Positions 3 to 63,848 of a stretch of 64,000 bases of DNA are shown here, piece after piece. A program made the translations under genes and the position numbers. The stretch is from Saprospiraceae bacterium. Lineage in GTDB: Bacteria > Bacteroidota > Bacteroidia > Chitinophagales > Saprospiraceae. Below the pieces are notes generated by a model. The model was not told where the DNA came from, searched no databases, and saw only the letters and a list, made by a program, of their open reading frames with translations. The first letter of the stretch is position 1, and every line of letters begins with the position of its first letter. Location: contig JAEUUP010000107.1 of assembly GCA_016787525.1 (NCBI GenBank), forward strand, positions 18,988-82,987. The letters are read 5' to 3'.

Positions 3-1679
3 CGCATTGATGATTGGGGTAAACCTTGGAATTGGGCAGATGTGGCGTTCAATGCCGATAGAAGCAAAGCAACTTATGGCGGCTTTTACACACAAGAACA
101 AGCCAAAGAGATTGTGGCTTATGCCCAAGCACGCAATATTACAGTCGTACCCGAAATAGAAATGCCGGGTCATTCGCAAGCGGCAATGGCAGCTTTTCCC
201 GAATTGTCATGCCACCCCTCAGTACATTTTGGTACTTCGGGCGATTTTTATGCGAACAAAGTGGAAGGCAATTATTGTGCTGGAAATGATGCGGCTTTTA
301 CGTTTTTGGAAGATGTTTTGACCGAAGTGATGGCAATTTTTCCTTCAAAATACATTCATGTCGGTGGTGATGAAGTTGAAAAAGACAGTTGGAAAAAATG
401 CCCAAAATGTCAAAATCGCATGAAAACCGAAGGTTTGAAAAACGAAAATGAACTGCAAAGCTATTTCATTCGCAGAATGGAAAAGTTTTTAACGGCTAAA
501 AACCGAAAATTGATTGGTTGGGACGAAATTTTGGAAGGTGGTCTCGCACCTGATGCTACGGTGATGAGTTGGCGCGGCGAAGCAGGGGGTATTGAAGCGG
601 CAAAAATGAAGCACAATGTCGTTATGTCACCAGGCTCGCCCTGCTATTTTGACCATTATCAAGGCGACCCCGAAACTGAACCTGCAGCGTTTGGCGGTTT
701 CAATACTTTGAAAAAAGTCTATAACTACGAACCGATTCCTGCAGAAATGACTGCCGAAGATGCAAAATACGTGTTGGGCGCACAAGCCAATCTGTGGACG
801 GAGATGATTCGCAAACGGGAAGGTATCGAATACATGATTTTGCCTCGATTATTGGCATTATCAGAAGTCGTTTGGTCGCCAAAAACGCAGCGCAATTGGT
901 TGGGTTTCAATCAGCGTTTACAACCGCATTTGGTCGGTTTTGAACATAAAGGGCTACATTATTCAAAAGGTAATTTTAAAGTGGATATAAAACCTGTGGT
1001 GGATAATGGGAAAATTTCCATCTCTTTGGAGACTGAAAATACTGAGGGGGTGATTTTTTATACGACCGACGGCTCAATGCCCACGATTGGTAGTACAAAA
1101 TATGACAAACCTTTTGAGGTCAATAAAGCAATGACTGTGAAAGCGGCATTGGCGTTGAATAATCAAATAATGACCTTGAAACCTGCCGAACAGTCTTTCA
1201 CAACCAATAAAGCAACGGGTAAAAACGTGCAATATGCCACACCTTTCAATAAAAATTACCCTGCGAATGGCGTAAATAGTTTGACGGATGGTTTCAGAGG
1301 GACAAAAGACCATGGCAAACAATGGCACGGCTTCAGTGGCAAAGACATGGTGGCGACGATTGATTTGGGCGTGGCAACGACTGCGAGTCGTATTACGATT
1401 GGTTGTTTGCAAAACTATGGTTCGTGGATATTTTTTCCGCAATCGGTCAAGTTTGAAGTGTCGGAAGATGGGCAGAATTTTACAGAAATAAAAACGGTAC
1501 AAAATACGATTCCACCGATTTCGGGTTCTGCACAAATACAAGATTTTAAAGTAGAATTTGCAGAAAAAAAGATAAAAGCCATACGTGTAACGGCTAAAAG
1601 CTTAGGCGTTTGTCCGAAAGGACACCCTGGCGAAGGAGGCGAAGCGTGGGTTTTTGTAGATGAAATATTGGTGGATTAG
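3..1679 (+). CDS. Beta-N-acetylhexosaminidase, GH20 (5' truncated by window edge)
   Basis: The reading frame is open to the left edge, so the N-terminus lies outside the window. GH20 enzymes remove terminal GlcNAc/GalNAc from glycans. Visible catalytic-barrel motifs are PEIEMPGHS and HVGGDE; the Asp-Glu pair that polarises the substrate acetamido group and acts as acid is encoded at 369-374. After the barrel come a chitobiase C-terminal domain (FYTTDGSMPT, about nt 1050-1200) and a discoidin-like module ending in WVFVDEILVD. The barrel closely resembles that of the second GH20 at 52285-53886, which lacks these C-terminal modules. The 10-mer TACTGAGGGG at 1040 is read in frame as NTEG. A strong hairpin follows the stop codon. 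Confidence 0.93.
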   Translation, partial: RIDDWGKPWNWADVAFNADRSKATYGGFYTQEQAKEIVAYAQARNITVVPEIEMPGHSQAAMAAFPELSCHPSVHFGTSGDFYANKVEGNYCAGNDAAFTFLEDVLTEVMAIFPSKYIHVGGDEVEKDSWKKCPKCQNRMKTEGLKNENELQSYFIRRMEKFLTAKNRKLIGWDEILEGGLAPDATVMSWRGEAGGIEAAKMKHNVVMSPGSPCYFDHYQGDPETEPAAFGGFNTLKKVYNYEPIPAEMTAEDAKYVLGAQANLWTEMIRKREGIEYMILPRLLALSEVVWSPKTQRNWLGFNQRLQPHLVGFEHKGLHYSKGNFKVDIKPVVDNGKISISLETENTEGVIFYTTDGSMPTIGSTKYDKPFEVNKAMTVKAALALNNQIMTLKPAEQSFTTNKATGKNVQYATPFNKNYPANGVNSLTDGFRGTKDHGKQWHGFSGKDMVATIDLGVATTASRITIGCLQNYGSWIFFPQSVKFEVSEDGQNFTEIKTVQNTIPPISGSAQIQDFKVEFAEKKIKAIRVTAKSLGVCPKGHPGEGGEAWVFVDEILVD

Positions 1680-1685
1680 GGCAAG

Positions 1686-2493: not shown

Positions 2494-4017
2494 CTATTTT
2501 GTATTTACACTTAGGGCAAAAGTCGAGCAAGGCAACCCCTCAGTATTTACCAAGTTCCCATCGCTAAAAGGTTTCCAACCGTATAAAACACGTTTTACTT
2601 TTAAAGAGGTTGTGATAATCATCTTCCGTTTTTTTAAAACAGCAGGAACTTCGTGAATAATGCCATTCATTGTTTCAACAAATACCCCCCTCAGTATTTG
2701 ACCTTCTGAAACAGTTATTTTACAGTCAAAATGAACAATAATTTGTCCTTTTTTATAAACAGCTTTTAAGGGCTTGGGTCCTTCAAAAGCCATTGTCTTT
2801 TTATAAGTTTTCGATAATGCTATTTTGGCTAAACGCTCGCCAACCGTTTTTTTATCTGTTGGATGAACGTCTGTTGGGTGTCCAACATCGCTTGTCACTG
2901 CCATGCCTACATTGTCTAAACTATCGGCTAACCGCCGTTGACTGTCTCTAAAATAACCCCAATTTTCCGATTTATAGCCTTTTTCTGTCGAAATTGAAGA
3001 CAATTGACAAAAGTAAAACGGTAAATTTTCACCCCATTGTTTGCGCCAATCGGCAATAAGCAAGGGAAACAGTCGCTCATGCTGTTGCACCCGCACGAGA
3101 CTTAGAGAATTACTTTCGCCTTGATACCACAAAAAGCCTTTGATTGGAAATACTGTAAACGGCTGCATAGCTTCGCTTAAAAAACTCGGTTTGTAAAGGT
3201 GGTTATAACCCAATGTGTCCTTTGGCACTAATGACGGATTGTTTTTTAAAAGGCTGTCCAAATTTTGATGCCCCCTCAGTATGCACCACGGTTCGAGGTA
3301 TGCGTTGTTCATCCAATCGCCTTCAAATAGCTTGTGCAAAGCCGTATCGGAACGTGTTGCCTCTTCACGCAACCATGCTTCCAAAGGTGAACCACCAACA
3401 GCTAAATGAATCAAACCTATTGGAATATCGGTGTTTTGTTCCACCATTTGACCAAAATAATACGCTACTGCAGAAAAGCCTTTCGCGCTCGTGGAGTCGG
3501 AAATTGACCAATTACCTTCATAAAAATTTTCGGGTTGAAGGTGCTTTAATTCATTGATTTTGAAAGGCTTATTGATGGGCGGCAAGGCTTTTTTATAATT
3601 AAAAAGCCTCAAATGGGGATTAAAAGCCGTTTTTAAGGTTGTTTGTGCGTGTTTTTCGTTTGACAATGGAAATTCCATATTCGATTGTCCTGCACACAAC
3701 CATACATCGCCAATGAGGATATTATCTAAAACGATGATTTCTGAACCGCTTTGAATGGTGAGTTTTTGTCCGTTTTTTGTTGCTTTTTGAGGGTCAAAAT
3801 AGACCGCCCAAGTAGAGTCCGATTTGACTGTGGTTGAAATAGTTTTAGAAAAAAATGACACAGCTACCCCCTCAGTAGGTTTGCCTTTTCCGAAGATGTG
3901 AATGCGTTTTTCACGTTGCAAAACCATATTGTTATCAAACATTTTGCCCAAACTCAATTGTGCAGTTAAGTCATTGAGTATAAAGCAAAATAGGCAGATA
4001 AAAACAAGGTTTTTCAT
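2494..4017 (-). CDS. Secreted sialate O-acetylesterase (SASA family)
   Basis: A 507-residue protein with a signal peptide (MKNLVFICLFCFILNDLTAQ). It would remove O-acetyl groups from sialic acids so that sialidase can act. The SGNH-type nucleophile block reads GDVWLCAGQSNMEF and the second block FLWYQGESNS; GQSNM and QGESN are hallmarks of the SASA/DUF303 family. The start codon shares one base with the stop of the upstream GntR gene (4017), suggesting translational coupling. It is the last gene of the sialic-acid cluster. Four 10-mers lie within it (2536, 2687, 3272, 3868), one of the densest loads in the window. Function is inferred from family plus context. Confidence 0.9.
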   Translation of the reverse strand: MKNLVFICLFCFILNDLTAQLSLGKMFDNNMVLQREKRIHIFGKGKPTEGVAVSFFSKTISTTVKSDSTWAVYFDPQKATKNGQKLTIQSGSEIIVLDNILIGDVWLCAGQSNMEFPLSNEKHAQTTLKTAFNPHLRLFNYKKALPPINKPFKINELKHLQPENFYEGNWSISDSTSAKGFSAVAYYFGQMVEQNTDIPIGLIHLAVGGSPLEAWLREEATRSDTALHKLFEGDWMNNAYLEPWCILRGHQNLDSLLKNNPSLVPKDTLGYNHLYKPSFLSEAMQPFTVFPIKGFLWYQGESNSLSLVRVQQHERLFPLLIADWRKQWGENLPFYFCQLSSISTEKGYKSENWGYFRDSQRRLADSLDNVGMAVTSDVGHPTDVHPTDKKTVGERLAKIALSKTYKKTMAFEGPKPLKAVYKKGQIIVHFDCKITVSEGQILRGVFVETMNGIIHEVPAVLKKRKMIITTSLKVKRVLYGWKPFSDGNLVNTEGLPCSTFALSVNTK

Positions 4018-4737: not shown

Positions 4738-6315
4738 TTAATCTTTCAATACGTCTTTTAAAGGCACTCTGACAAAATACAAATCTCTCGAGCCTTCATA
4801 AAGGAGACCAATTGTGTTTTTATCAATCATCGTCATGCACGAATAACCATAACATACGCGCTCATCAATGAGCAATTGATTTTTGTCCAACCATGTATTG
4901 CCTTCGTCCAGACTCAATTTTATGGTGATATTTTTACGCTCTTTGGCATCATTTGGGTTTGAAAATGCCAAAATATCCTTGGCATCACCGTTTTTTGTAG
5001 ATGCCACGCGGAGGATGCTCGCCATGCAAATCGGCTCTGTCAAAGCGGTGCGAGAAGTCGGATGTTCCGCCCATGTTTTACCAAAATCCTTTGTTGTGGC
5101 GACACTTCGAGAGCCACCGCGATTGTCGCGCATATTGAGCATGATAGACCCGTCGTTGAGTTCAACGACTTGCGCTTCGGTGGTGTTGGATTTTGCGCCC
5201 GTGCCTGTTTGCCACGTTTGACCATGATTTTTGCTATAAATCAAGGTCGAAAACGGCATTCCTGTCGAATCTCGATATTGTGCAGGAAAAACAAGCGAGC
5301 CATCGCGCATCGAAATACCCATGCCCGGTCCTTGAAAAAACAACCGCCAAGACGGGTTTTTTACTGAGGGGGTGATATTCATTGGCTGCGACCACGTCAC
5401 GCCATCGTCTTCGCTTTTGACCAATATAAATTGTCCTGTTTCATCGGGTGTCATACCTGCGCCCGAACCATTCCAACCTCTGTTGCCATGACTCCACAAG
5501 GCTGCTACCCAAATTGTACCCGTTTGTTTGTCCACCAATACTGAGGGGTCGCCGATGCCATCGGTTGCGCCAACGCCCATGTCCATAATGACTTTCATAG
5601 GTTGCCACGTCAAGCCTCCGTCGGTGCTGCGGCTCATACCCACATCAACATTGGCGGGTAAATCGCGGTCGTGTTCGTAGCGATTGTCATAAACAGCTAT
5701 CAAAGTGCCATTATTTGTCGTTGCGATGCCAGGGATTCGGGTCGTGTGGATATTGTCTTGATTTTTCAAACGCAGGGCATGGCCGATGTATTTGGGTGCA
5801 ATACTGTTCGCTTCTTTGGGCGCAATTGCGCCAATTTGGGCTATTTGCACTTTTTCACATTGAATATTGAGCTTATTTCTGACGTCAGCTGTTGGCGATA
5901 ATTTGCACGATAGCCAAAGGAAATTTTCACCTGCATTGAGTAAATTATTGCAAGGAATGACCATGTTGTTTTTAATATCGCTCACCGAAGCGGTGAGTGT
6001 TGCTGCCGCCATATTAGGATTAGAACCTGAAGCATAAATTTCTATTTTTTCAATATCTTTCAAATCAGTGCTATTGGCAACCGTAAGCTGCAAATGTTCC
6101 AATTTAATGCCCCCTTGACCAAGCGGTAAACGGATAGATATTTTGGATAAAAGATTGACATCCAACCCTTTAAGAATTGGATTTTGCATGTTAAAGCACC
6201 ACACATCGCCTTGAAAACCTTGTGGTGCAGTACCAATTACACTTGTTTTACGACAACAAGAGACGATTAAAAGCAGTATGGGCAATGCTATGAAAAGGGC
6301 TATTTTATTTTTCAT
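4738..6315 (-). CDS. nanH: Sialidase (GH33) lipoprotein
   Basis: Releases terminal sialic acid from glycans. A longer frame extends to 6399, but I chose the ATG at 6315 because it gives a proper lipoprotein signal (MKNKIALFIALPILLLIVSC, lipobox Cys20) and overlaps the previous gene by only 11 nt. Residues about 30-180 are the N-terminal carbohydrate-binding-like domain of Bacteroidetes sialidases. The RIP motif (TTRIPGIA, Arg193) begins the six-bladed propeller. Five Asp-boxes are visible: SRSTDGGLTW (about 228-237), SEDDGVTW, SKNHGQTW, TKDFGKTW and SLDEGNTW. Probably anchored in the outer membrane. Two 10-mers (5362, 5539) lie in the propeller. Confidence 0.93.
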   Translation of the reverse strand: MKNKIALFIALPILLLIVSCCRKTSVIGTAPQGFQGDVWCFNMQNPILKGLDVNLLSKISIRLPLGQGGIKLEHLQLTVANSTDLKDIEKIEIYASGSNPNMAAATLTASVSDIKNNMVIPCNNLLNAGENFLWLSCKLSPTADVRNKLNIQCEKVQIAQIGAIAPKEANSIAPKYIGHALRLKNQDNIHTTRIPGIATTNNGTLIAVYDNRYEHDRDLPANVDVGMSRSTDGGLTWQPMKVIMDMGVGATDGIGDPSVLVDKQTGTIWVAALWSHGNRGWNGSGAGMTPDETGQFILVKSEDDGVTWSQPMNITPSVKNPSWRLFFQGPGMGISMRDGSLVFPAQYRDSTGMPFSTLIYSKNHGQTWQTGTGAKSNTTEAQVVELNDGSIMLNMRDNRGGSRSVATTKDFGKTWAEHPTSRTALTEPICMASILRVASTKNGDAKDILAFSNPNDAKERKNITIKLSLDEGNTWLDKNQLLIDERVCYGYSCMTMIDKNTIGLLYEGSRDLYFVRVPLKDVLKD

Positions 6316-7492
6316 TTTCGTTATTTTTAATCTTTTCCAACGTTTTCCAACACTGATATAAGCCGCGTGGGACATGGTAACAACCTTTCCATTTTCCACC
6401 TTTTAAAGTCAAAAGTGGCTCGCCACGCCTGTTCAAATAACCAAACCATTCGCCAAATTCGGGGTCTGGAAAATGTTGCCAAGTCCATTCATGCACTTTT
6501 TCAAACCAAGTCCAACAACGTTCATCGCCCGTGTGCAAATAGCCTTTCAGCAAAGCAATCAAGGTTTCGATATGCACCCACCACAGTTTTTGATCCCATT
6601 CCAATTGTTGGGGCGGATAGCCTTTTATGTCCATAAAATATAAAATTCCACCATATTGAGCATCCCAAGCGTATTCCAAAGTGTGCAAAGTGATGTCTTT
6701 GGCGCGTTCTATCAAGGCTTTATCGCTTTTGCGTTCGCCCAAATCCATGATAAACCACATCGCTTCAATCGCATGACCTGGGTTTAAAAGTCGCCCTTCA
6801 AAACTGTCTGAAAACTGCCCATCGGGCGTGACATTTTCTAAAATTAAACCCGTTTTTGTATCATAAAACACAGACATCACTTCGTTGAGACAATCCTCAA
6901 TCAAAGCCTCAACTACTGAGGGGGGCAATAAATGCTCGATTTCAAGCGATAAATTGCATAAAATCATGGGCAAAGCGAAGTTTTTTAGAGGTCGTGTGCC
7001 TTCTACCGCTTTTGACCAATGCCGTTTGGGATTGTTTTGTCGCTTTAAAATAGACTCAAAAGTGCTTCGGGCTATGTCAGCATATTCATTGTTATTGGTT
7101 GCTTTATAAAGCTGTCCAAAAGCTTGTGTTGCAAAACAATCGGAGAAAATATTATAAGGTTGGATTAAAGGTTTTCCTTCTCTTGTCAATGAAAAATACC
7201 AAGTGCCATCGTTAGCACGGGCGTATTTTTTCAAAAAATCTGCCCCATGTTCCGCAAAATCCAACCATTCTTGCTTGTGTTCCAAATTGTTATACAACAT
7301 CGAAAAAAACCATGTTTCACGCCCTTGAAGCCAAATAAATTTGTCGGTATCAAACACATGACCCTCTCTCGTCAAGCAGGTGAAATAACCACCCCCCTCA
7401 GTATCTTTGGAGTTTTTCATCCAAAAAGGCATGACATTTTCGAGTAATTCGGCTCGATATTGATTCAGATATTTTTCAATTTTTTTTGACAT
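6305..7492 (-). CDS. N-acylglucosamine 2-epimerase (AGE/RnBP family)
   Basis: A 395-residue (alpha/alpha)6-barrel protein. Typical AGE signatures are GGGYFTCLTREGHVFDTDKFIWLQGRETWFFSMLYN near the N-terminus, LLNPGHAIEAMWFIMDLG in the middle and the C-terminal FGEWFGYLNRRGEP...KGCYHVPRGLYQCW. In Bacteroides sialic-acid operons this family (NanE there) converts ManNAc, the product of the lyase, to GlcNAc; the context here supports the same role. It overlaps the sialidase start by 11 nt. Two 10-mers lie inside. The one at 7394 is read KDTEGGGYF, where related enzymes commonly have a D-x-E-x-GGYF stretch of similar length. Confidence 0.92.
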   Translation of the reverse strand: MSKKIEKYLNQYRAELLENVMPFWMKNSKDTEGGGYFTCLTREGHVFDTDKFIWLQGRETWFFSMLYNNLEHKQEWLDFAEHGADFLKKYARANDGTWYFSLTREGKPLIQPYNIFSDCFATQAFGQLYKATNNNEYADIARSTFESILKRQNNPKRHWSKAVEGTRPLKNFALPMILCNLSLEIEHLLPPSVVEALIEDCLNEVMSVFYDTKTGLILENVTPDGQFSDSFEGRLLNPGHAIEAMWFIMDLGERKSDKALIERAKDITLHTLEYAWDAQYGGILYFMDIKGYPPQQLEWDQKLWWVHIETLIALLKGYLHTGDERCWTWFEKVHEWTWQHFPDPEFGEWFGYLNRRGEPLLTLKGGKWKGCYHVPRGLYQCWKTLEKIKNNENEK

Positions 7493-7545: not shown

Positions 7546-7701
7546 TTATTTTAGAAAACCGCCATTTTTCAAGATTTTAGACCATAAAACATACCCTTCG
7601 CCGAGCAAATGCAGCCCATCGTTGGTGTATTTTTTATCCAAACGCCCTTCTGAATCAAGGAATTTTGAATATAAATCAATATAAGTGACCCCCTCAGTAT
7701 T
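7546..7701 (-). pseudogene. C-terminal remnant of an SGNH/GDSL esterase
   Basis: Between the transporter and the epimerase the minus strand has an open 51-residue frame with no start codon (it runs back into TGA). It reads NTEGVTYIDLYSKFLDSEG, continues through TNDGLHLLGEGYVLW and stops at 7546-7548. DGLHLLGEGY is the C-terminal Asp-x-x-His catalytic block of SGNH hydrolases, and the whole piece looks like the last quarter of a GDSL acetylesterase, a class often found in sialic-acid operons. The recognisable homology begins directly at a 10-mer (TACTGAGGGG, reverse of 7690-7699). The rest of the gene is missing. Confidence 0.75.
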
Positions 7702-7712
7702 TTTACTAACAA

Positions 7713-8942
7713 TTAATCATCTACAAAGTCATTCACCTTGGGGCGCAAAAAAGAAATCTGGATAACCAAAGCCACCAAAACCACACCTGCCAAAATGGCA
7801 AAACTCTGTCCTAAATTACCTTTATCCGTTGATTTACCCAATAAATCAGTGATAAATGCGCCTGCAAAAACACCCACCATATTCATCAAACCATAAGCCG
7901 TTGCGCGGTGTTTGGTATCAACAAACTGGCAAACGATGGGCATATTATTGGTGTCAAACATGCCAAAACCAACGCCGAAACAAAAGGCTGCGCCAATCAC
8001 ATGAAGCAACGAAGTACCAAAACCAATGAGAATCAACGCGGGAATAGTCAATGAAAGTCCAATCGCGCTTGTGTAAATCCGTCCTTTGATGTTTTTCTGC
8101 ACCCATTTATCCGATAAAAGACCGCCGACAATGACACCCAGAAGCGATGAAAACGAAGTCGTAATCGTAGAAAGTGGCCCGGCTTGTGCCATGTCAATAT
8201 TCAATTTGCTGGCAAAAAGAGTAGGCAACCAATTTTTTATCGCCCAACCAGGTAAGCTTGGTATGGCGAAGTAAAAAAGGATAATCCAAAACGAAATATT
8301 GCTCAAAAGCACGCCTAAACCCTTGAAAAGCGGTGTTTTTACTGAGGGGGTGAGTGTTTCAGATGTTGTACTTTTTTTATCTTTCAAAAAGAAAATCAAA
8401 ACAATGGCATACAAAATACCTATCAAACCAAAAGTGTGAAAAGCGGTATTCCATGAAAACTTGTCGGCAATTGTCGCTCCAAATCCGCCTAAAGCCTGAC
8501 CCATATAAATGCCCGTCATGTGGATGCCGACTGCCAAAGACCGTGTTTTCGCCGTATGAAATTCTGCAACCAAGGCTAATCCTGCGGGCATATAAAGGGC
8601 TTCGCTCACACCCATCAATGCTCTTAATCCATACAATTGATTAAAACTCGTGGCATAACCCATCGCAAAAGTGACACCCGACCACACCATTAAACTCCCA
8701 ACGATGAGCCATTTTTTACTGACTTTGTCGGCAATCATACCCGCAACAGGACTCATAAACCCATAAATCCATAGGAAAACTGCCATTAATCGCCCAAAAT
8801 TGGTCGCCATTTGCAGTTCGGCAATATCGATTTGCATAGATGGTTTCATGGTGGCGAGCATTTGCCTGTCCATATAATTGAGCAAGGCCACGACCCACAG
8901 TAGTCCGACTAAAATCCAAGGATAGTTTTTTGATTGCATCAT
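7713..8942 (-). CDS. MFS transporter, probable sialic acid importer
   Basis: A 409-residue major facilitator protein with about 12 transmembrane segments. LNYMDRQMLATMKP is the loop 1 signature of the anion:cation symporter-like MFS group, which includes many sugar-acid carriers; ADKVSKKWLIVGS and SDKWVQKNIKGRIY are the cytoplasmic loop motifs. It sits between the mutarotase and the epimerase, so transport of N-acetylneuraminate across the inner membrane is the likely job (NanT role). Its start overlaps the stop of the Kelch gene (ATGATGA at 8937-8942), so the two are probably translationally coupled. One 10-mer at 8340 (TPSV). Confidence 0.87.
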   Translation of the reverse strand: MMQSKNYPWILVGLLWVVALLNYMDRQMLATMKPSMQIDIAELQMATNFGRLMAVFLWIYGFMSPVAGMIADKVSKKWLIVGSLMVWSGVTFAMGYATSFNQLYGLRALMGVSEALYMPAGLALVAEFHTAKTRSLAVGIHMTGIYMGQALGGFGATIADKFSWNTAFHTFGLIGILYAIVLIFFLKDKKSTTSETLTPSVKTPLFKGLGVLLSNISFWIILFYFAIPSLPGWAIKNWLPTLFASKLNIDMAQAGPLSTITTSFSSLLGVIVGGLLSDKWVQKNIKGRIYTSAIGLSLTIPALILIGFGTSLLHVIGAAFCFGVGFGMFDTNNMPIVCQFVDTKHRATAYGLMNMVGVFAGAFITDLLGKSTDKGNLGQSFAILAGVVLVALVIQISFLRPKVNDFVDD

Positions 8943-10195
8943 TTTTCGTTTTGTATGTCAACGGCTAAAATATAAGGCGTGCGGACACCTGCTCGAATTT
9001 CGCCACTGGGTATGATAATGCGTTTGCCCCATCTAAAAGCCGTAGTTGTGACGGGCGAATGGAGAGGGATAGTGCCGATTTTTGACCATTTATTCGTTTG
9101 TGTATTGTACAATAAAACGTCTTTGCTAAAACCTGGATGTGAAGCCAATATTTGATTTTTCTTTAAAACCAACTCTTGTTTTTTACTGTCTTCTTTTTCA
9201 ATAGCGATAGCAGCTAAAAGTGTTTCGACTTGATGAAACGTTTCGCCTTTATCGCCCCCAAAGAGTACAATATATTGATTGTCAATAGCAATGCCTGTTC
9301 CTGCGGTCAAAGCGGTGATAGTTTGTTGTCCATCGCTGATATTACTGAGGGGTATCCAAATGTTTTGTTTTGTATCAAATTTAAAAACCGAATTGTACAA
9401 ATCGCTGATGCCCGAAGCGGTTTTTGCTCTACCTCCTATGACGTAAATTCCATCAGATTGCGCCACTGTGACGGCATGAGATATTGGTTTGGGCAAATTG
9501 GGTAAAATTTTCCACGCTGCCGTTCCATCATTTATATCAAGGCTTAAAAAAGAATTTGTGGTTTTATTGTCGCTTTCACCGCCAGACACGTACAAAATAC
9601 TCCCCCTCAGTATAGCCGCACAATTTGTCAATGGTAGAGGTAAGGATGGTAAAAACTCTATTTCAATAGCTTGATTCTCAGCGTTCCAACGCATTAAAAA
9701 AACCTTATCCGATACACCATTTTCATTTTCACCACCCATGCAAACTATGCCTTTGGGTGTTGAAACTGACGCACCATAAGCGATATTTCCTGAAAGTTTA
9801 AAAGAAGTTTCTAACCTCTTCACACGACCATTTCTATTTTTTTTAAAAATATAAATATCGTTGTGATACTGCTTTTTGCCTCCTTCCCAAGGCATACCGT
9901 TTGGGAAATTTGCGCCACCTGCCACCATCATCGCCCCATTATGCACGCCTCCGAAAGCACCTGCTACACCGATATTGGGTAGCGAATCTAAAAGTTGCCA
10001 ATTCATCTTAGGCTGTGTACTTTTTTGAGCAGTTATAGTGTTTGATTTTGAAAAAAAGAGCATCAAAAGCATCAATACACTGAGGGGGGGGCAGATTGCG
10101 GATTTTGGGTTTCGGATTTCGGTCAGATGTCGCCGAAATCCGAAATCTCCTATCCGAAATCGCTTTACGCCAATTGGTAGTTTGATTTTATCCAT
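8939..10195 (-). CDS. nanM: Kelch-repeat N-acetylneuraminate mutarotase
   Basis: A six-bladed Kelch propeller, 418 residues. Kelch blades are visible as GAFGGVHNGAMMVAGGANFP, GIVCMGGENENG, SILYVSGGESDN, DGIYVIGGRAK, YIVLFGGDKGE and RIIIPSGEIRAG. NanM converts alpha- to beta-Neu5Ac in the periplasm. The N-terminus is odd. The hydrophobic signal segment (VLMLLMLFFSKSNTITAQ) begins only at residue 40 and is preceded by about 27 residues encoded by an inverted repeat (10110-10145). The ATG at 10195 lies inside the 3' end of nanA; the only closer in-frame ATG (10072) would give a signal peptide with no basic n-region. The repeat therefore seems to have entered the n-region in frame. 10-mers at 9343 and 9603. 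Confidence 0.88.
   Translation of the reverse strand: MDKIKLPIGVKRFRIGDFGFRRHLTEIRNPKSAICPPLSVLMLLMLFFSKSNTITAQKSTQPKMNWQLLDSLPNIGVAGAFGGVHNGAMMVAGGANFPNGMPWEGGKKQYHNDIYIFKKNRNGRVKRLETSFKLSGNIAYGASVSTPKGIVCMGGENENGVSDKVFLMRWNAENQAIEIEFLPSLPLPLTNCAAILRGSILYVSGGESDNKTTNSFLSLDINDGTAAWKILPNLPKPISHAVTVAQSDGIYVIGGRAKTASGISDLYNSVFKFDTKQNIWIPLSNISDGQQTITALTAGTGIAIDNQYIVLFGGDKGETFHQVETLLAAIAIEKEDSKKQELVLKKNQILASHPGFSKDVLLYNTQTNKWSKIGTIPLHSPVTTTAFRWGKRIIIPSGEIRAGVRTPYILAVDIQNEK
10078..10165. repeat. Inverted-repeat element inside the nanM signal peptide
   Basis: A 13-bp perfect inverted repeat (10110-10122 with 10133-10145, arms TTTCGGATTTCGG/CCGAAATCCGAAA) with a 10-nt loop. It is flanked by further CGGATTT/CCGAAAT words and, on the left, by a variant 10-mer with eight Gs (CACTGAGGGG at 10079-10088). 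It is translated in frame as FGFRRHLTEIRNPKS. Short palindromic repeats of this general type are scattered in Bacteroidota genomes; here one is in a coding region. Confidence 0.7.
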
Positions 10196-11094
10196 TCATA
10201 AAATCCGATTTGTTCTAATTCATTTAAAAAATCTTGGTACACAGCATCTGACATTCGAGTTATGGGAAGACGGAAATGGCCGCAATCAATACCCATGGCT
10301 TTCATAAAGGCTTTACCAACTCGGATGCCACCGTATTTACCCAATAAACGGACGATTTCGATGGATTTATGCTGATATTCTAAGGCTTTTGCTAAATGAC
10401 CGTTCTGAAACGCGCTGATAACTTGGTGATAAACAGGAGCTGCATAATTATAGGTGCTGCCAACTGCCCCACGCACACCCATAGCCATTGCCGCCAATAA
10501 TTCTTCATCACGCCCCCAAAGTATATCGTATTTGCCGTCAGCAAAATCGAGGCATTGGGCGCAATCCATCAAATTAGCATCACTGTATTTGATGCCAACG
10601 AAATTAGGTATCTGCTCATGGACGATTTTTAAAAACGGCAACATGTGCAGATGCACGTTTGATAAAACAGGAATATGGTAATAGTAGAAAGGCATATTGG
10701 GTGCTGCTGCGGCCACTTCTGCGCAACAATCGGCTAATATATTAACGCTGTTGGGTTTAAAATAATAGGGCGGTAGATACGCTATGGCATCGTAACCGCA
10801 AGAAGCAGCTTCTTGCGCCAATATTTTACAGGCTTCTACTGAGGGGCTGCCCGCCATAAATATTGTAACGAGCCGACCCTTTGCCGCCTTTATCCATGCG
10901 TGCATCAGGGTAATTTGTTCTTCATGTGTGAGCGATACACCCTCACCCGTAGAGCCACCAACAAACACGCCTTTTACCTTGTTTTCATGTAAAAAGTCAG
11001 CGTATTGAGGTATAATATCTACGTTAAGGCTGTTATCTACATTCATGGGTGTAAATGGTGCAGCAATAAGCCCCTCAATTTTTTTGAAATTCAT
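10165..11094 (-). CDS. nanA: N-acetylneuraminate lyase (DapA/NAL family)
   Basis: A 309-residue class I aldolase that cleaves Neu5Ac to ManNAc and pyruvate. Visible key parts are GGSTGEG (about 46-52) for carboxylate binding, the tyrosine of YYYHIP (Tyr139) and the Schiff-base lysine in FVGIKYSD (Lys169). YHIP plus GIKYSD is the pattern of neuraminate lyases rather than dihydrodipicolinate synthase, and the surrounding genes agree. It follows SusD by 81 nt containing an inverted repeat, and its 3' end overlaps the annotated start of nanM by 31 nt. One 10-mer at 10837 is read SPSVEA. Confidence 0.93.
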   Translation of the reverse strand: MNFKKIEGLIAAPFTPMNVDNSLNVDIIPQYADFLHENKVKGVFVGGSTGEGVSLTHEEQITLMHAWIKAAKGRLVTIFMAGSPSVEACKILAQEAASCGYDAIAYLPPYYFKPNSVNILADCCAEVAAAAPNMPFYYYHIPVLSNVHLHMLPFLKIVHEQIPNFVGIKYSDANLMDCAQCLDFADGKYDILWGRDEELLAAMAMGVRGAVGSTYNYAAPVYHQVISAFQNGHLAKALEYQHKSIEIVRLLGKYGGIRVGKAFMKAMGIDCGHFRLPITRMSDAVYQDFLNELEQIGFYEWIKSNYQLA

Positions 11095-53901: not shown

Positions 53902-56229
53902 ATGAAAATCAAACCAATTATTCTAATCATCGCTATTTTAGGTAGTTCGACGGCTTGGTATGCCTGCCGTACTGAGGGGGGAAGTAACAGCATTCCTGAC
54001 AAAATCAGTTACAATTTCCACATTCGTCCCATCCTTTCCGACAAGTGCTTTGCTTGTCACGGTCCCGATGCCAATAAGCGAAAAGCGGACTTTCGTTTAG
54101 ATATTGAAGAATATGCTTTCAAACCGTTGAAGGAAACCAAAGGCGCATTTGCCATTGTGCGAGGCAAACCCGAAGAGTCGGAATTGTTCAAACGCATCAC
54201 GTCCAAAGACCCAAACTATCAGATGCCTACGCCTGATTCGCATTTGGGTAGTTTGAATGAAAATGAGATAAAAATCATTGAAAAATGGATAAAACAAGGC
54301 GCGAAATACGAAAAACACTGGGCTTTTATCAAACCCGAAAAAGCCGCTTTGCCTTCAGTAAAAGACAAAAATTGGGTTAAAAATGAAATAGATTATTTCA
54401 CACAAGCCAAAATGACCGAAAAAGGCTTGACACCCAATCCAGAAGCGGGCAAAGAATATTTGCTCAAAAGAGCTGCTTTAGACCTCACAGGTTTGTTGCC
54501 TTCTCTGGATTTGATGAATGAATTTACGGCTGATAACAGTGAAAATGCTTACGAAAAAGCCATTGATAAACTCTTAACCACCCCTCAGTATGGCGAGAAA
54601 ATGGCAGTGCATTGGCTCGATTTGGCACGTTATGCCGATAGTTATGGCTATCAAGATGACAATATTCGCACGCAATGGGCTTGGCGCGATTGGGTGATTC
54701 ATGCTTTCAATGAAAATATGCCTTACGATAAATTCATCACATGGCAATTGGCAGGCGATATGTTGCCAGACTCGAACAAAGAAGCCATACTCGCCACAGC
54801 TTTTTTACGCAACCACAAATACACCGAAGAAGGCGGCATTATTCCAGAAGAATACCGCATTGAGTACAATTTGGATAAAACGAAAACATATTCAAAAGGC
54901 ATTTTGGGATTGACTGCCGAATGTGCGCAATGCCACGACCACAAATACGACCCAATTTCACAAAAGGATTATTATCAATTGTTTGCGTTTTTCAACAACA
55001 GTAAAGAAAAGGGTTTCGAGGGCGATGTCAGTCAATCGCAACCCGCCAAAAATCCTAAATTGCAACTGACCGATAAGGAAATAAAAGCCATTTACACTTT
55101 TATCAACAAAAAAGATACGGGCAGTCTAACAGTATCTGTCATGGGTGAATTGAATGGCAAAAGAGATACGCCACGTGTGACACGCATATTGAAACGTGGT
55201 GCTTACGATCAGCCGAGCGATACTGTCAAAGCCGCCGCTTTGGCAGCCGTTATGCCTTTTGATACGACCCGATTACCACGTAACAGACTCGGTTTGGCAC
55301 AATGGACAGTGGATAAAAACAATCCTTTGACGGCGCGAGTGTTCGTTAATCAATTGTGGCAAGAGTTTTTGGGCAATGGTTTGGTCAAAACCACAGGTGA
55401 CTTTGGTATGCAAGGCAATTTGCCCACGCATCCAGAGCTTTTGGATTGGCTTGCTGTGGATTTTATGGAACATAATTGGGACATCAAACGCCTCGTGAAG
55501 CAGATTTTATTATCTGCTACCTACCGACAATCGGCAAAAGTGAGAGACGAACACTTAGCTATTGACCCCGAAAACCTCTATTTGGCGCGATACGCTCGCA
55601 CGAGAGTCAAAGCCGAATTTGTTCGAGACATCGTTTTAGGCAGTAGTGGTTTGTTGCATAAAGACATTGGCGGCCCAAGTGTCAAACCTTATCAACCCAA
55701 AGGTCTGTGGGAAAGAGCGACATCTGGCAGGGGCGTTTTAGCCAAATATGAATTGGACGAAGGCGAAGCCCTGTATCGTCGTGGTATGTACACGTTTATC
55801 AAATTGACCGTACCGCCGCCTTCGATGATACTTTTCGATGCCAGCAACCGCGACCAATGTGAGGTCAAACGCTCCAAAACGAGTACGCCTTTGCAAGCTC
55901 TCATCATGCTCAACGACCCCTCAGTATTGGAGGCTTCAAGAGCCTTTGCACAACGGCTTTTGACAGAACAGAACGGTATTGATGATAAAATCAACAAGGC
56001 ATTTCAGACCATTATTTGCCGAAAACCATCGGAGAAAGAGCAAAAAATTCTGAAATCTTATTTTGAAGAACAATTGGTTTTGTTTAAAAATAAAAAATTA
56101 GATGCCGAAAAAACATTGTCAATCGGTGCTTCACCTATCAATAAACAAGTGGATTTGAACGAATCGGCAGCGTTGATGAAGGTGGTGAGTACGATTTATA
56201 ATATGGAGGAGGCGATTACGAAGACGTAA
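53902..56229 (+). CDS. DUF1549/DUF1553 surface protein with cytochrome c motif
   Basis: A 775-residue exported protein of a class best known from Planctomycetes. A planctomycete cytochrome c domain carries heme motif CFACH (49-53) in FHIRPILSDKCFACHGPDANKRKADFRLD; then DUF1549 (ALDLTGLLPSLDLMNEF...YGEKMAVHWLDLARYADSYGYQDDNIRTQW...CAQCHDHKYDPISQKDYYQLFAFFNN, a second CxxCH) and C-terminal DUF1553 (ALMDPSV-type region, NDPSVLEASRAFAQRLL). Leads a block with a DUF1501 partner. Thought to act on surface polysaccharides; activity unproven. Three 10-mers (53970, 54581, 55917), all at natural-looking positions. Confidence 0.9.
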   Translation: MKIKPIILIIAILGSSTAWYACRTEGGSNSIPDKISYNFHIRPILSDKCFACHGPDANKRKADFRLDIEEYAFKPLKETKGAFAIVRGKPEESELFKRITSKDPNYQMPTPDSHLGSLNENEIKIIEKWIKQGAKYEKHWAFIKPEKAALPSVKDKNWVKNEIDYFTQAKMTEKGLTPNPEAGKEYLLKRAALDLTGLLPSLDLMNEFTADNSENAYEKAIDKLLTTPQYGEKMAVHWLDLARYADSYGYQDDNIRTQWAWRDWVIHAFNENMPYDKFITWQLAGDMLPDSNKEAILATAFLRNHKYTEEGGIIPEEYRIEYNLDKTKTYSKGILGLTAECAQCHDHKYDPISQKDYYQLFAFFNNSKEKGFEGDVSQSQPAKNPKLQLTDKEIKAIYTFINKKDTGSLTVSVMGELNGKRDTPRVTRILKRGAYDQPSDTVKAAALAAVMPFDTTRLPRNRLGLAQWTVDKNNPLTARVFVNQLWQEFLGNGLVKTTGDFGMQGNLPTHPELLDWLAVDFMEHNWDIKRLVKQILLSATYRQSAKVRDEHLAIDPENLYLARYARTRVKAEFVRDIVLGSSGLLHKDIGGPSVKPYQPKGLWERATSGRGVLAKYELDEGEALYRRGMYTFIKLTVPPPSMILFDASNRDQCEVKRSKTSTPLQALIMLNDPSVLEASRAFAQRLLTEQNGIDDKINKAFQTIICRKPSEKEQKILKSYFEEQLVLFKNKKLDAEKTLSIGASPINKQVDLNESAALMKVVSTIYNMEEAITKT

Positions 56230-57144: not shown

Positions 57145-57220
57145 AATACAAAAAAATAAAACTCATTTTACCCCCTCAGTATAAGAGCTGTTTTTTAATC
57201 AAATTCAGAATTTACAAAAA

Positions 57221-60889: not shown

Positions 60890-61690
60890 ATGAAAAATAT
60901 ACACTTTTTAATCGTTTTTCTATCAAACGTTGCCGTTTTATCGGCACAAGATGCCTTTCAATTAGCACCGCCGTTGTTAAAATACCCCTCAGTATTTTTC
61001 ACAAAAGAAGCTAAAATTGACTTGGTTTTTGCCGAACCCAATACTCAAATTCACTATACTTTAAACGGGGAAGAACCGACTGAAAATGCGCAACGCTATA
61101 CGCACCCCCTCAGTATCACAAAGAATTTTACAACCGTCAAAGCGCGGGTTTTCGGAAAAAACTACTTGCCTTCTGATGTTGTGCAAGCGACGTTTATCAA
61201 AGAAGGTTTGCCCATAAAATCTGCTGAAACGACACTGCCCAATCCAAAATACAAAGGTTCTGGTGCGAAGACTTTGATAGACAATGAAGGTGGAAAAACC
61301 ACCGTTTCAAGCCCCACATGGTTGGGTTTTCAGACAGATACTGTTGATGTTATTTTGAATTTACACAAAAAAGAAAAGTTCAAAAAGGTGCTTATTGGTC
61401 TTTTGCGAGACTATGGTTCTTGGATTTTTTTGCCTGAAAAGATAGCGATTTACGCTTTTGACGATAAAAAAAATTATTTTCAATTACTTGATAATCAAAT
61501 ATTTAACCAATCAAAAGACATAAAAGGTAGTTTTTATACCCCCTCAGTATTGTCGCTTAAAAAAAGTATCAAAACAGACAAAATCAAAATCCAATTGCAT
61601 GTAGTAAAACAAATACCCGATTGGCATGTCGGCAAAGGGAATCGGAGTTGGATTTTTATAGACGAAATAAAAGTGTACGGAGATGAATAA
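60890..61690 (+). CDS. Secreted chitobiase-C domain plus discoidin-like module protein
   Basis: A 266-residue protein with signal peptide (MKNIHFLIVFLSNVAVLSAQ). Residues about 25-110 form a chitobiase/hexosaminidase C-terminal domain (IDLVFAEPNTQIHYTLNGEEPTENAQRY...VKARVFGKNYLPSDV). Residues about 120-266 form the shared module (PNPKYKGSGAKTLIDNEG...TWLGFQTDTVDVILNLHK...GSWIFLPEKI...RSWIFIDEIKVYGDE). No catalytic domain, so probably a binding protein of a surface complex. It overlaps the next gene by 8 nt. Three 10-mers (60985, 61106, 61540), the highest density per kb here. Confidence 0.85.
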   Translation: MKNIHFLIVFLSNVAVLSAQDAFQLAPPLLKYPSVFFTKEAKIDLVFAEPNTQIHYTLNGEEPTENAQRYTHPLSITKNFTTVKARVFGKNYLPSDVVQATFIKEGLPIKSAETTLPNPKYKGSGAKTLIDNEGGKTTVSSPTWLGFQTDTVDVILNLHKKEKFKKVLIGLLRDYGSWIFLPEKIAIYAFDDKKNYFQLLDNQIFNQSKDIKGSFYTPSVLSLKKSIKTDKIKIQLHVVKQIPDWHVGKGNRSWIFIDEIKVYGDE

Positions 61691-63848
61691 AACGAAAAAC
61701 CTAACTTATAATACCACTTTTGCGCTCAATTGCCTTTTACTTTTCCTTGTTGTGTTTGGCAATACTTTGGCTGTCCCGATTGGGTTGCAGTTCGTGGGGC
61801 GTATGCACCCTTTGCTTTTGCATTTTCCAATAGTTTTATTGGTTTTAGCGGCTGTTTGGGAGGTTTTTTTAAGCAAAAAATTAGGAAATACTGAGGGGGG
61901 GCAACCAATAACTAATAACGAAATCGGCGACTGGATTTTGTTATCGGCTGCACTCACGGCTGTCTTATCGGCATTGATGGGTTTGTTTTTATCGCAAGAA
62001 GAGGGTTACAAAGCGGAAGCGATTTTTTGGCACAAATGGACAGGCGTGGCAGTGGCATTTCTGTCGTTTGTCTGGTACAGTTTTCGGCAAACTGCGCGGC
62101 AGGCAAAAGGTTTGAGGGCGTTAGCGAGTGTGTCAAGTCTCGCAGCAGTCGTGTGGGCGGGGCATCAAGGCGCAAATATCACGCATGGCGAAAGTTTTTT
62201 AACAGCACCTTTTCAGACTAAAAATGAAGAAAAACAGGTGTCCGCCGATGAAGCCGTGATATTTACGGATTTGGTAAAACCTATTTTGGAGAAAAAATGT
62301 ATGAGTTGCCACAATACGCAAAAAGCCAAAGGCGATTTGATAATGGAAACACAAGAGCAATTACTGAGGGGGGGCAAAAATGGCAAATTGTGGGACTTGG
62401 CGGCGGCTGATTTGGGTTTGATGATGCAACGGGTTCACTTGCCATTGGATGAAAAAAAGCATATGCCACCCGCAGGAAAACCCCAATTGACCACCGAAGA
62501 AACGGCTATTTTATTTCATTGGCTGAAAAATGGGGCGAGTTTTACTAAAAAAGTGAGCGAATTGGCGGATACAGATACTTTGAAAATACTGGCAAAAGCT
62601 ATTTTAAAATCAAGCGATACCGAAGTTTATACATTCAAAGCGGCGGACGAAAGCACCATTAAAAAATTGAATAATAATTATCGTGTCATTTCGCCTTTGT
62701 CGCTCAATTCTCCAGCTTTGAGTGTCGAGTTTTTTGGTGCTTCTTTTTTTTCGAGCGAAAAATTGAGCGAATTGAAAGGCATTAAAGAACAATTGGTGCA
62801 TTTGGGTTTGAATAAAATGCCTGTGAAAGATGAAGATTTAAAAACGATAGCGGGTTTTGGGAATTTGAGAAAACTAAATTTATCGTTTACGCAAATAACA
62901 GGCGCGACTTTGGGCGAATTGAAAAGCCTAAAACATTTGCGCCAACTGTCGCTTTCGGGTACACCTGTCACTATGGCACAATTAGAAGATCTAGCGCAGA
63001 TGCCCGCGTTAAAAACCTTGCAACTGTGGAATACAGGCGTTTCGCCACAAGATTTGGCTGCTTTGAAGTCAAAATTGCCCAATATTTCGATTGAATCGGG
63101 TTTTAGAGGCGATACGGTTGTTGCCCGTTTGAGTATGCCGATTTTAGAAAACGATGAAGTACAGGTTTTTAAAGAAGATACTAAAATCACGCTCAAACAC
63201 TATGTGAAAGGGGCAGTCATTCGCTACACTTTGGACGGAACTGCGCCCGATAGCCTCAAATCGCCCGCTTATACTGAGGGGGGGATTTTGATTAATCAAT
63301 CCACAACTTTGAAAGCCAAAGCCTTTTTAGAAGGGTGGGTGAGTAGCGATACTTTGACGCAACAATTCTACAAAGCGGGTCTTGTTGCCGATTCTGTGCG
63401 GTTTGTTCAAGCACCCAATCCACAATATTCGGGTAAAGGAAAGATGCTTTTTGATGGCAAAATGGGCGATTCTAATTTCAAAAGTGGCAAATGGTTGGGT
63501 TTCAAAGAAAATCCAATGGAAGCTGTTTTGTATTTCAATCAACCCGTTACAGTCTCAAAAGTAACGATGAATACGCTGGTTTTGATTGGCAGTTATATCA
63601 TGCCTGCCCAAGAACTGCAAGTGTGGGGCGGCAGCAGTCCGTCAAACTTGACTTTGCTCAAAACGTTGACACCTACTCAACCGACGAAAGAAGCACCATT
63701 TTATACGAAAGGTTTTGAATTTAGTTTTCCAGCTAAACAAGTCAGTGTCTTGAAATTAGTCGGCAAATCTGTTCAAAAACTACCGCCGTGGCATCCTGGC
63801 AAAGGCGACAAAGGTTGGTTTTTTATTGACGAAATATTTATCAATTGA
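61683..63848 (+). CDS. Membrane cytochrome c protein with LRR, chitobiase-C and discoidin-like domains
   Basis: A 721-residue multi-domain protein. Four or five N-terminal transmembrane helices (DUF2231-like, residues about 5-165) precede a single cytochrome c motif near residue 206 (KKCMSCHNTQKAKGDLIMETQEQLL with MPP later). Residues about 310-475 show leucine-rich repeats (LRKLNLSFTQITGATLGELKSLKHLRQLSLSGTPVTMAQLEDLAQMPALKTLQLWNTGVS). Then a chitobiase-C domain (KGAVIRYTLDGTAPDS) and the shared module (KWLGFKENPMEAVLYF...GWFFIDEIFIN). It likely sits in the inner membrane facing the periplasm, linking electron transfer with glycan sensing; inference only. 10-mers at 61889, 62362, 63272. Confidence 0.88.
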   Translation: MNKTKNLTYNTTFALNCLLLFLVVFGNTLAVPIGLQFVGRMHPLLLHFPIVLLVLAAVWEVFLSKKLGNTEGGQPITNNEIGDWILLSAALTAVLSALMGLFLSQEEGYKAEAIFWHKWTGVAVAFLSFVWYSFRQTARQAKGLRALASVSSLAAVVWAGHQGANITHGESFLTAPFQTKNEEKQVSADEAVIFTDLVKPILEKKCMSCHNTQKAKGDLIMETQEQLLRGGKNGKLWDLAAADLGLMMQRVHLPLDEKKHMPPAGKPQLTTEETAILFHWLKNGASFTKKVSELADTDTLKILAKAILKSSDTEVYTFKAADESTIKKLNNNYRVISPLSLNSPALSVEFFGASFFSSEKLSELKGIKEQLVHLGLNKMPVKDEDLKTIAGFGNLRKLNLSFTQITGATLGELKSLKHLRQLSLSGTPVTMAQLEDLAQMPALKTLQLWNTGVSPQDLAALKSKLPNISIESGFRGDTVVARLSMPILENDEVQVFKEDTKITLKHYVKGAVIRYTLDGTAPDSLKSPAYTEGGILINQSTTLKAKAFLEGWVSSDTLTQQFYKAGLVADSVRFVQAPNPQYSGKGKMLFDGKMGDSNFKSGKWLGFKENPMEAVLYFNQPVTVSKVTMNTLVLIGSYIMPAQELQVWGGSSPSNLTLLKTLTPTQPTKEAPFYTKGFEFSFPAKQVSVLKLVGKSVQKLPPWHPGKGDKGWFFIDEIFIN

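What the first reader, a model, noticed from the sequence alone, without database searches (positions are those of the whole stretch)
1040..63281. A single 10-mer, CCCCTCAGTA, recurs about once per kilobase across the whole window
Seen: about 61 exact copies by hand count (37 in one orientation, 24 in the other), in coding and intergenic DNA. With an assumed 40% G+C I estimate well under one chance occurrence in 64 kb on both strands. Known parallels are the DNA uptake sequences of Neisseria and Pasteurellaceae, HIP1 of cyanobacteria, and Chi sites. I know of no such word described for this group. Possible roles: uptake signal for natural transformation, recombination (Chi-like) site, protein-binding site for chromosome organisation, or residue of a miniature repeat.
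Basis: partly seen in the sequence, partly recalled or inferred. Interest (0 to 1): 0.95.

Follow-up and report, generated by a model that had tools for sequence, protein, structure and literature searches.

The report
Helix-phased DNA word every kilobase
In one bacterium, likely of the Saprospiraceae, a single 10-letter DNA word occurs 6,920 times (about once per kilobase) and the DNA on both sides rises and falls in A+T content in step with the double helix, so the word likely anchors a protein complex that would wrap the chromosome; none of the several hundred relatives examined is rich in it, but several phage fragments are.

Summary
The window holds 62 exact copies (0.03 expected), the 7.27-Mb genome 6,920 (reversed word: 3). 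No other genome among 397 drawn from its family or 394 from its phylum has more than 14. The word is about 1,700-fold over-represented, has few one-mismatch variants, is non-palindromic and shows no clear polarity. None of 451 sampled four-kilobase windows lacks it; copies closer than about 200 bp are depleted.

Two new features shape the reading. A+T content oscillates around the word with a period near 10.6 bp, on both sides out to about 75-100 bp, with nearly the same phase in spacers and in five coding frame classes. And phage contigs carry the word at 0.3-1 per kb with the same near flanks. This resembles the 130-bp, 10.75-bp-period gyrase motif; I commit to a wrapped complex, gyrase-type, as likeliest (0.45). 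A DNA-uptake signal is a close rival (0.35): density, hairpin pairs at gene ends and phage accumulation fit it; the exclusion zone, the long wave and the missing pilus ATPase do not. No wet evidence exists for either.

The parts
215..224 (+). word copy, in ORF 3-1679
1040..1049 (-). word copy, in ORF
2536..2545 (+). word copy, in ORF 2494-4017 (NTEG)
2687..2696 (+). word copy, in ORF 2494-4017 (ILRG)
3272..3281 (+). word copy, in ORF 2494-4017 (ILRG)
3868..3877 (+). word copy, in ORF 2494-4017 (PTEG)
5362..5371 (-). word copy, in ORF
5539..5548 (-). word copy, in ORF
6914..6923 (-). word copy, in ORF
7394..7403 (+). word copy, in ORF
7690..7699 (+). word copy, intergenic
8340..8349 (-). word copy, in ORF
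9343..9352 (-). word copy, in ORF
9603..9612 (+). word copy, in ORF
10837..10846 (-). word copy, in ORF
12722..12731 (-). word copy, intergenic
12805..12814 (-). word copy, intergenic
15153..15162 (-). word copy, in ORF
15893..15902 (-). word copy, in ORF
16467..16476 (-). word copy, intergenic
18033..18042 (+). word copy, intergenic, 3 bases after a stop codon
19082..19091 (+). word copy, intergenic
21917..21926 (+). word copy, intergenic
23069..23078 (+). word copy, intergenic
24212..24221 (+). word copy, intergenic, 2 bases after a stop codon
25639..25648 (+). word copy, in ORF
27722..27731 (+). word copy, in ORF
29397..29406 (+). word copy, in ORF
30804..30813 (+). word copy, in ORF
31621..31630 (+). 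word copy, in ORF
33087..33096 (-). word copy, in ORF
34971..34980 (+). word copy, in ORF
36798..36807 (-). word copy, just after the stop of ORF 35488-36792 (inside a small called ORF on the other strand)
37611..37620 (-). word copy, in EutB-family ORF
39276..39285 (+). word copy, in ORF
39610..39619 (+). word copy, upstream part of sulfatase ORF, before where its homologues begin
39976..39985 (-). word copy, in sulfatase ORF (NTEG), no insertion against homologues
40487..40496 (+). word copy, in sulfatase ORF (PLST), no insertion
40765..40774 (+). word copy, in sulfatase ORF; Pro where the 25 homologues shown have another residue
41419..41428 (+). word copy, in ORF
42784..42793 (+). word copy, in ORF
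43381..43390 (+). word copy, in ORF
44220..44229 (-). word copy, in ORF
45057..45066 (-). word copy, in ORF
45622..45631 (+). word copy, in ORF
46577..46586 (-). word copy, in ORF
47970..47979 (+). word copy, intergenic
48320..48329 (-). word copy, in ORF
50426..50435 (+). word copy, in ORF
51668..51677 (+). word copy, in ORF
52068..52077 (+). word copy, intergenic
52237..52246 (+). word copy, at ORF start
53970..53979 (-). word copy, near the N terminus of the PSD1/PSCyt ORF (TEG)
54581..54590 (+). word copy, in PSD1/PSCyt ORF (TPQY)
55917..55926 (+). word copy, in PSD1/PSCyt ORF (DPSV)
57172..57181 (+). word copy, intergenic
60985..60994 (+). word copy, in ORF
61106..61115 (+). word copy, in ORF
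61540..61549 (+). word copy, in ORF
61889..61898 (-). word copy, in ORF
62362..62371 (-). word copy, in ORF
63272..63281 (-). word copy, in ORF

Best explanation
CCCCTCAGTA is the 10-bp core of a genome-wide DNA site that likely anchors a protein complex which would bend or wrap about 150-200 bp of the chromosome around itself, most likely DNA gyrase or a gyrase-like nucleoid protein. Shown: 6,920 copies, about one per kb; an A+T wave of about 10.6 bp phased to the word on both sides; even spacing; depletion of gaps below about 200 bp; higher density at gene ends; the same word and near flanks in phage contigs. Inferred: that a protein reads the core and wraps the flanks, that many sites are occupied on the chromosome (which would give the exclusion zone), and that the protein is gyrase or a recruiter of it, acting at gene ends where positive supercoils gather ahead of RNA polymerase.
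For: A+T wave phased to the word in 1,179 sites, from about -70 to +85 by eye; windowed amplitude above the maximum of 200 jittered nulls in all six windows between -100 and +110. Period 10.62 (bootstrap 10.54-10.68) at 13..104, 10.52 at 13..80, 10.64 (10.56-10.73) at -100..-9 (1.86 Mb). Nearly the same phase in 263 intergenic sites and in five coding frame/strand classes (197, 93, 177, 308 and 141 sites), so codons do not cause it. Near flanks alike in phage contigs (101 sites; 97 after stricter removal of duplicates). In the two outer windows six control words reach at most 0.019 against 0.038 and 0.033 for the word, in the near 3' window 0.029 against 0.106. Literature yardstick: the E. coli gyrase motif is 130 bp, with flanks -63..-17 and 20..66 of 10.75-bp periodicity (PMC6379681, section 23 read, other passages seen). 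Exclusion zone: 39 of 1,800 gaps under 100 bp against 170.5 expected, 73 against 249.6 under 150 bp. Regularity: 0 of 451 four-kb windows empty, variance 1.92 at mean 3.92. Density per kb: convergent spacers 2.59, codirectional 1.96, divergent 1.37, coding 0.89. No clear strand polarity. Virus records carry it at 0.3-1 per kb, one with a Mu-type transposition protein.
Against: I know of no gyrase that reads a strict 10-mer, and the E. coli motif is symmetric and degenerate whereas this core is neither. The wave's symmetry centre is ambiguous (about 2, 7 and 12 score alike), and next to the word the wave is nearly three times stronger on the 3' side. In the near 5' window one control word, GCCCC, reaches 0.033 against 0.038 for the word. 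GyrA and GyrB of this genome look ordinary by eye (48.9% and 54.6% identity to E. coli by tblastn). In the phage contigs close pairs are not depleted (9 of 88 gaps under 100 bp against 7.1 expected), though two of those records were found through hairpin pairs, and the outer-window wave there is below the null's 95th percentile. Real uptake words also have helix-spaced A+T tracts just 3' of the core: 55 USS in five Pasteurellaceae phages show them at +12..14 and +24..25, amplitude 0.102, and 55 sites are too few to exclude a weak long wave. The spacer excess could be mere permissiveness.
Confidence: 0.45

Rival explanations
1. A DNA-uptake signal: a surface receptor would bind the word on incoming DNA and favour kin DNA during natural transformation, and biased uptake plus recombination would drive the word to one per kb. 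It would be the first strong one in Bacteroidota that I know of and would use a machinery without type IV pili.
For: Length, density, non-palindromy, lack of clear polarity, coding and intergenic copies, restriction to one genome among those examined; exact inverted pairs as hairpins behind stop codons, for example C36 65981/66012, as described for DUS (PMC3630211, passages); accumulation in phages, as for USS (PMC6776037, passages; 17 USS in phage HP1). ComEC, an adjacent four-HHH protein and DprA are present. Riemerella anatipestifer needs ComEC, DprA, ComF, RecA and four proteins without homologues in known transformation machinery, one of them with HHH domains (PMC8459023, abstract and sections 19-20). 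R. columbina prefers its own DNA, yet only A/T-rich k-mers were listed for it (PMC7965970, section 16). One-mismatch load, 167 per 1,184, is of the order of the 21% given for K. oralis.
Against: Close spacing is depleted here, whereas 23% of H. influenzae USS lie within 100 bp of another (PMC7811141, passages). The wave reaches about 75-100 bp on both sides; the USS motif used in the literature is 29 bp (PMC1939737, passages), and one search shows two 3' tracts only. No T2SS/T4P ATPase over cut-off. Two DUF5689 matches pass the cut-off, but by eye they are secreted nuclease-like and phospholipase-D-like proteins with no barrel gene beside them. Competence genes are also in relatives that lack the word.
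Confidence: 0.35
2. A lineage-specific nucleoid protein, not gyrase, reads the asymmetric core and wraps DNA, as a bacterial analogue of nucleosome positioning.
For: Same wave, exclusion and spacing data; an asymmetric core fits a single DNA-binding domain better than the symmetric gyrase; gyrase genes look ordinary by eye.
Confidence: 0.12
3. A Chi-like recombination signal or a polar segregation mark (KOPS or AIMS type).
For: Short, abundant, exact, in phages too.
Against: 3,463 versus 3,457 copies by strand (across contigs of unknown orientation); neighbours on the same strand 616, opposite 550, where 75% polarity would give 62.5% (arithmetic; the Chi value is recalled); correlation with GC skew -0.08 over 23 bins.
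Confidence: 0.04
4. A methyltransferase- or restriction-linked iterated word (HIP1 type), a dispersed repeat or a sequencing artefact.
For: High copy number.
Against: Not palindromic; of eight sub-words none exceeds its expectation by more than 1.2-fold outside the full word; coding copies keep frames and are no insertions; the word is in virus records of seven IMG/VR datasets.
Confidence: 0.04

Closest known systems
DNA uptake sequences of Neisseriaceae (DUS) and Pasteurellaceae (USS)
   Same: Strict 9-12-mer about once per kb, both strands, genes and spacers, inverted pairs at gene ends, lineage dialects, accumulation in resident phages, helix-spaced A+T tracts 3' of the core.
   Different: No T4P ATPase over cut-off in this genome; close pairs depleted instead of common; two-sided wave to about 75-100 bp.
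DNA gyrase binding motif and strong gyrase sites (Mu SGS, BIME-2)
   Same: About 10.6-10.75-bp phased composition over roughly 130-200 bp; association with the ends of transcription units; a strong gyrase site is known in phage Mu, and a Mu-like record carries this word.
   Different: Here a strict asymmetric 10-mer is hard-wired about 7,000 times; the E. coli motif is degenerate and symmetric.
HIP1 of cyanobacteria
   Same: One short word dominates the genome.
   Different: HIP1 is palindromic and linked to methyltransferases (start of the abstract of PMC4390886 in a listing).
Chi and KOPS/AIMS
   Same: Short words read by chromosome machinery.
   Different: Those are polar relative to replication (recalled; AIMS seen in a listing only); this one shows no clear polarity.

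Membership tests
DUS/USS | Short exact word greatly over-represented, about 1 per kb, in genes and spacers, unpolarised | tested here: met
DUS/USS | Inverted pairs as hairpins at gene ends | tested here: met
   21 of 183 intergenic and 21 of 647 coding sites have a partner with up to 2 mismatches within 90 bp; several exact pairs follow stop codons
DUS/USS | Frequent close pairs (23% of USS within 100 bp in H. influenzae) | tested here: not met
   39 of 1,800 gaps under 100 bp, 170.5 expected; yardstick; in phage contigs 9 of 88
DUS/USS | Accumulation in resident phages | tested here: met
   that these phages reside in this lineage is inferred from the word
DUS/USS | Type IV pilus machinery | tested here: not met
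   4 weak PF00437 matches, none over cut-off
DUS/USS | Core transformation genes (ComEC, HHH/ComEA-like, DprA) | tested here: met
   ComEC and DprA also in relatives without the word
DUS/USS | The word raises DNA uptake or transformation | not testable with these tools
   needs an assay
Gyrase strong site | About 10.75-bp phased composition over about 130 bp | tested here: met
   period here 10.5-10.7
Gyrase strong site | Symmetry about the 4-bp cleavage site | tested here: inconclusive
   centres near 2, 7 and 12 score alike
Gyrase strong site | Degenerate core | tested here: not met
   strict 10-mer
Gyrase strong site | Binding and cleavage by gyrase | not testable with these tools
   needs purified enzyme
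Chi/KOPS | Replication polarity | tested here: not met
   contigs are unplaced, so an indirect test
HIP1 | Palindrome holding a methyltransferase target | tested here: not met
   word not palindromic; sub-words at most 1.2-fold over expectation
Miniature repeat/MITE | Longer conserved repeat, inserted | tested here: not met

The most novel reading that the evidence does not exclude
A bacterial lineage hard-wires its chromosome with some 7,000 nucleosome-positioning-like sites: one exact 10-mer per kilobase anchors a wrapped complex with a footprint of about 200 bp, the sites keep their distance from one another, and the phages of that lineage have been made to carry the same sites.
Probability: 0.42. 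Interest if true: 0.96.

Novelty: new variant of a known kind. Interest (0 to 1): 0.87.

Why it matters
If it is a wrapping site, it is a sequence-encoded, evenly spaced scaffold of a bacterial chromosome, written into genes and carried by phages; gyrase placement or nucleoid architecture could then be read from sequence alone. If it is an uptake signal, it is, as far as I know, the first strong one outside two proteobacterial families, in a phylum where one transformer, R. columbina, prefers its own DNA with no signal identified (PMC7965970). Either way the word may serve as a host tag that links virus contigs and metagenome fragments to this lineage.

Tried and rejected
Strand runs seen in the first listing of the genome search looked like replication polarity; the list is cut, and fetched DNA of the same stretch (C6:60001-80000: 14 plus, 10 minus, where the list shows plus only) does not show them. 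An insertion or repeat origin was tested with three protein families: 10 of 11 sites lie where homologues align, none is an insertion in this genome; the eleventh (39610) lies before the homologues begin. Near homologues of the PSD1 protein (82-89% identity) keep word-compatible peptides (28 of 31 TEG, 29 of 31 PSV; 0 of 30 for both in far ones); over three families retention at derived site columns was 0.75, 0.88 and 0.75 against 0.51, 0.63 and 0.14 elsewhere, but on 5, 6 and 1 columns, so I use it only as a hint of a wider clade. A direct-pair scan of virus contigs gave nothing. Sampled pieces (15.7-80 kb each) of 11 relatives show no 10-mer of comparable copy number. The Riemerella surface pair was sought through DUF5689; two proteins pass the cut-off but by eye are not clearly that pair. 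Of 17 records from the two hairpin scans, 15 carry only the one hairpin and are treated as chance. Record G823 repeats the first 7 copies of G802 with a constant offset of 84 and is not counted as independent. Two 'edge' sites were dropped from the phase classes; 12 of 1,835 sites near piece ends were dropped from the profiles. The near-homologue and phage datasets were reached through the word or through this genome, so they do not measure how common the word is elsewhere.

Full report
WHAT IS THERE. The window contains 62 exact copies of CCCCTCAGTA, 38 on the plus and 24 on the minus strand; dinucleotide shuffles give 0.03. The genome that holds the window (7,267,541 bp, 169 contigs, 98% complete) contains 3,463 + 3,457 = 6,920 copies, one per 1.05 kb; the word read backwards has 3. 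Of 39 relatives in a first draw, 397 other genomes of the family and 394 other genomes of the phylum draw, none has more than 14 copies (the draws overlap). The only other genome held for its genus has 3. Named genomes that match its ComEC best are mostly Saprospiraceae MAGs at 35-38% identity, so the family is likely Saprospiraceae; the organism itself is not named by any search.

ANATOMY. In 1,177,578 fetched bases there are 1,184 exact copies, about 1,700 times the second-order Markov expectation, first among all 10-mers with 30 or more copies. One-mismatch variants total 167 (20 permuted control words: mean 36, maximum 86) and two-mismatch variants 313 (controls: mean 561); sub-words exceed expectation by at most 1.2-fold outside the full word. 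Position -1 is C or A in about 95% of copies and +10 is T in about 60%. The word occurs in five of six coding frames; the sixth would put a stop codon in the gene. In three protein families it sits in aligned segments without insertion in this genome, often where homologues already carry compatible residues (TPQY, PLST, DPSV), in one case with a proline that none of the 25 homologues shown has. I infer that it arises by point substitution.

THE HELICAL WAVE. Averaged over 1,179 sites, A+T content rises and falls around the word with peaks near -6, -17, -27, -38, -48, -60, -70 and +10, +21, +31, +42, +52, +63, +73. Against a null in which each site is jittered by up to 5 bases, amplitudes are 0.106 (null maximum 0.021) at 14..46, 0.038 (0.016) at 46..78, 0.019 (0.014) at 78..110, 0.038 (0.013) at -43..-11, 0.033 (0.012) at -75..-43 and 0.022 (0.014) at -100..-75; further out it lies within the range of the null. 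Six control words from the same DNA (476-1,605 sites each) give at most 0.029 in the near 3' window and 0.019 in the two outer windows, but one, GCCCC, reaches 0.033 in the near 5' window, close to the word's 0.038. The period is 10.52 to 10.68 bp downstream, depending on the stretch fitted, and 10.62-10.64 upstream. The phase is nearly the same in 263 intergenic sites and in five coding classes that differ in frame and strand, so neither codons nor amphipathic helices make it.

SPACING AND PLACE. In 1,862,299 bases, a quarter of the genome (1,835 sites, 1,800 gaps), only 39 gaps are under 100 bp (170.5 expected) and 73 under 150 bp (249.6 expected); counts approach expectation by 200-250 bp. 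No 4-kb window of 451 lacks the word, the variance being half of Poisson. The longest gap, 6,877 bp, holds a serine-recombinase-like ORF and an RHS-like ORF, and a 4.2-kb gap of 30% G+C holds one 1,308-aa ORF (these names are by eye). Six windows below 34% G+C average 0.5 per kb against 1.09 in the 49 richest. So the word looks scarce in foreign-looking DNA and probably accumulates slowly. Density per kb is 2.59 between convergent genes, 1.96 between codirectional, 1.37 between divergent and 0.89 in coding DNA (crude gene calls of my own). Some exact inverted pairs form hairpins right behind stop codons.

PHAGES. Two hairpin-pair scans and four 14-mer scans of IMG/VR, with the pieces returned, gave 290 pieces, 18 with three or more words. 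Whole-record counts: 25 in 26,484 bp (G802), 28 in 36,799 (G803), 17 in 22,761 (G819), 14 in 42,049 (G820), 30 in 42,293 (G821), 5 in 8,341 (G822) and 4 in 4,053 (G824), from seven IMG/VR datasets; G823 (7 in 7,432) appears to be the same virus as G802, and G825 and G826 (2 and 3 copies) are left aside. PHROG matches name a terminase and a Mu-type transposition protein in G802, terminases in G803 and G819, a weak tape-measure match in G820 and a weak portal match in G822; the one tested protein of G821 gave none, but G821 shares proteins with G803 and G819. No protein of G824 was tested. These contigs were found because they carry the word, so I cannot say what share of the lineage's phages have it, and that they infect this lineage is inferred. 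Pooled sites (101, including those of G825 and G826) show the same -1 and +10 preferences; the near-flank wave exceeds the null's 95th percentile on both sides, the outer windows do not (97 distinct sites).

READING. Two known systems come close. Uptake words share density, placement, hairpins and accumulation in temperate phages. But in H. influenzae 23% of USS lie within 100 bp of another, the reverse of what is seen on this chromosome, though the phage contigs show no such depletion; no pilus-type ATPase passes cut-off in this genome; and the wave is longer than the two A+T tracts seen 3' of 55 USS copies, too few to rule out a weak long wave there. ComEC, an adjacent protein with four HHH_3 stretches and DprA are present; ComEC and DprA are also in most of the 12 relatives searched, which lack the word. 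The gyrase motif of E. coli, 130 bp with 10.75-bp periodic flanks and a link to the regions behind transcription units, matches the wave, the size of the exclusion zone and the gene-end excess; a strict asymmetric core does not, and gyrA and gyrB here look ordinary. Because the exclusion zone and the reach of the wave agree at about 150-200 bp by independent measures, I think the sites are occupied on the chromosome itself, and I commit to a wrapped complex, gyrase-type, at 0.45, with uptake at 0.35 and an unknown nucleoid protein at 0.12. All three are inferences; what is shown is the sequence pattern.

NOVELTY. The letters of the word occur in 62 PMC papers; the 20 listed are biomedical studies with no bearing on bacterial genomes, and the other 42 were not listed. 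Searches for uptake words in Bacteroidetes, HIP-like words, Saprospiraceae competence and over-represented words listed nothing on such a word; R. columbina was searched by its authors, who list only A/T-rich k-mers. The library holds open-licence papers only.

Noticed in passing
G000:C7, L061:16723-19845 (minus): comEC lies next to a gene for a 402-aa protein with four HHH_3 stretches; a homologue of it lies just downstream of comEC in four named loci, L094, L096, L098 and L099.
   Followed up: partly
window 28721-28752: A stretch of about 31 bp recurs at 91-100% identity on seven other contigs of this genome, and at 87-97% twice more on the window's own contig; unrelated to the word.
   Followed up: no
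window about 12700-12830: Short tandem-like repeats of ATCGTAA next to two word copies.
   Followed up: no
G000:C136:12103-18979: Longest word-free stretch seen (6.9 kb, 35.5% G+C), with a serine-recombinase-like and an RHS-like ORF by eye.
   Followed up: partly
G000:C99:31272-35486: Word-free 4.2 kb at 29.8% G+C with one 1,308-aa ORF, perhaps a modification or defence gene.
   Followed up: no
L042:2759-3181 (G000:C48): ORF made of SSERLD repeats, beside OLD/TOPRIM-like ORFs (by eye) in another word-free gap.
   Followed up: no
G802 (IMGVR_UViG_3300037309_000133) and G823 (IMGVR_UViG_3300043176_000003): What appears to be the same Mu-like virus is in two datasets, with word positions shifted by a constant 84 bases.
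   Followed up: partly
intergenic codirectional spacers, 840 kb sample: Word orientation follows transcription in 72 of 114 copies; unexplained.
   Followed up: no
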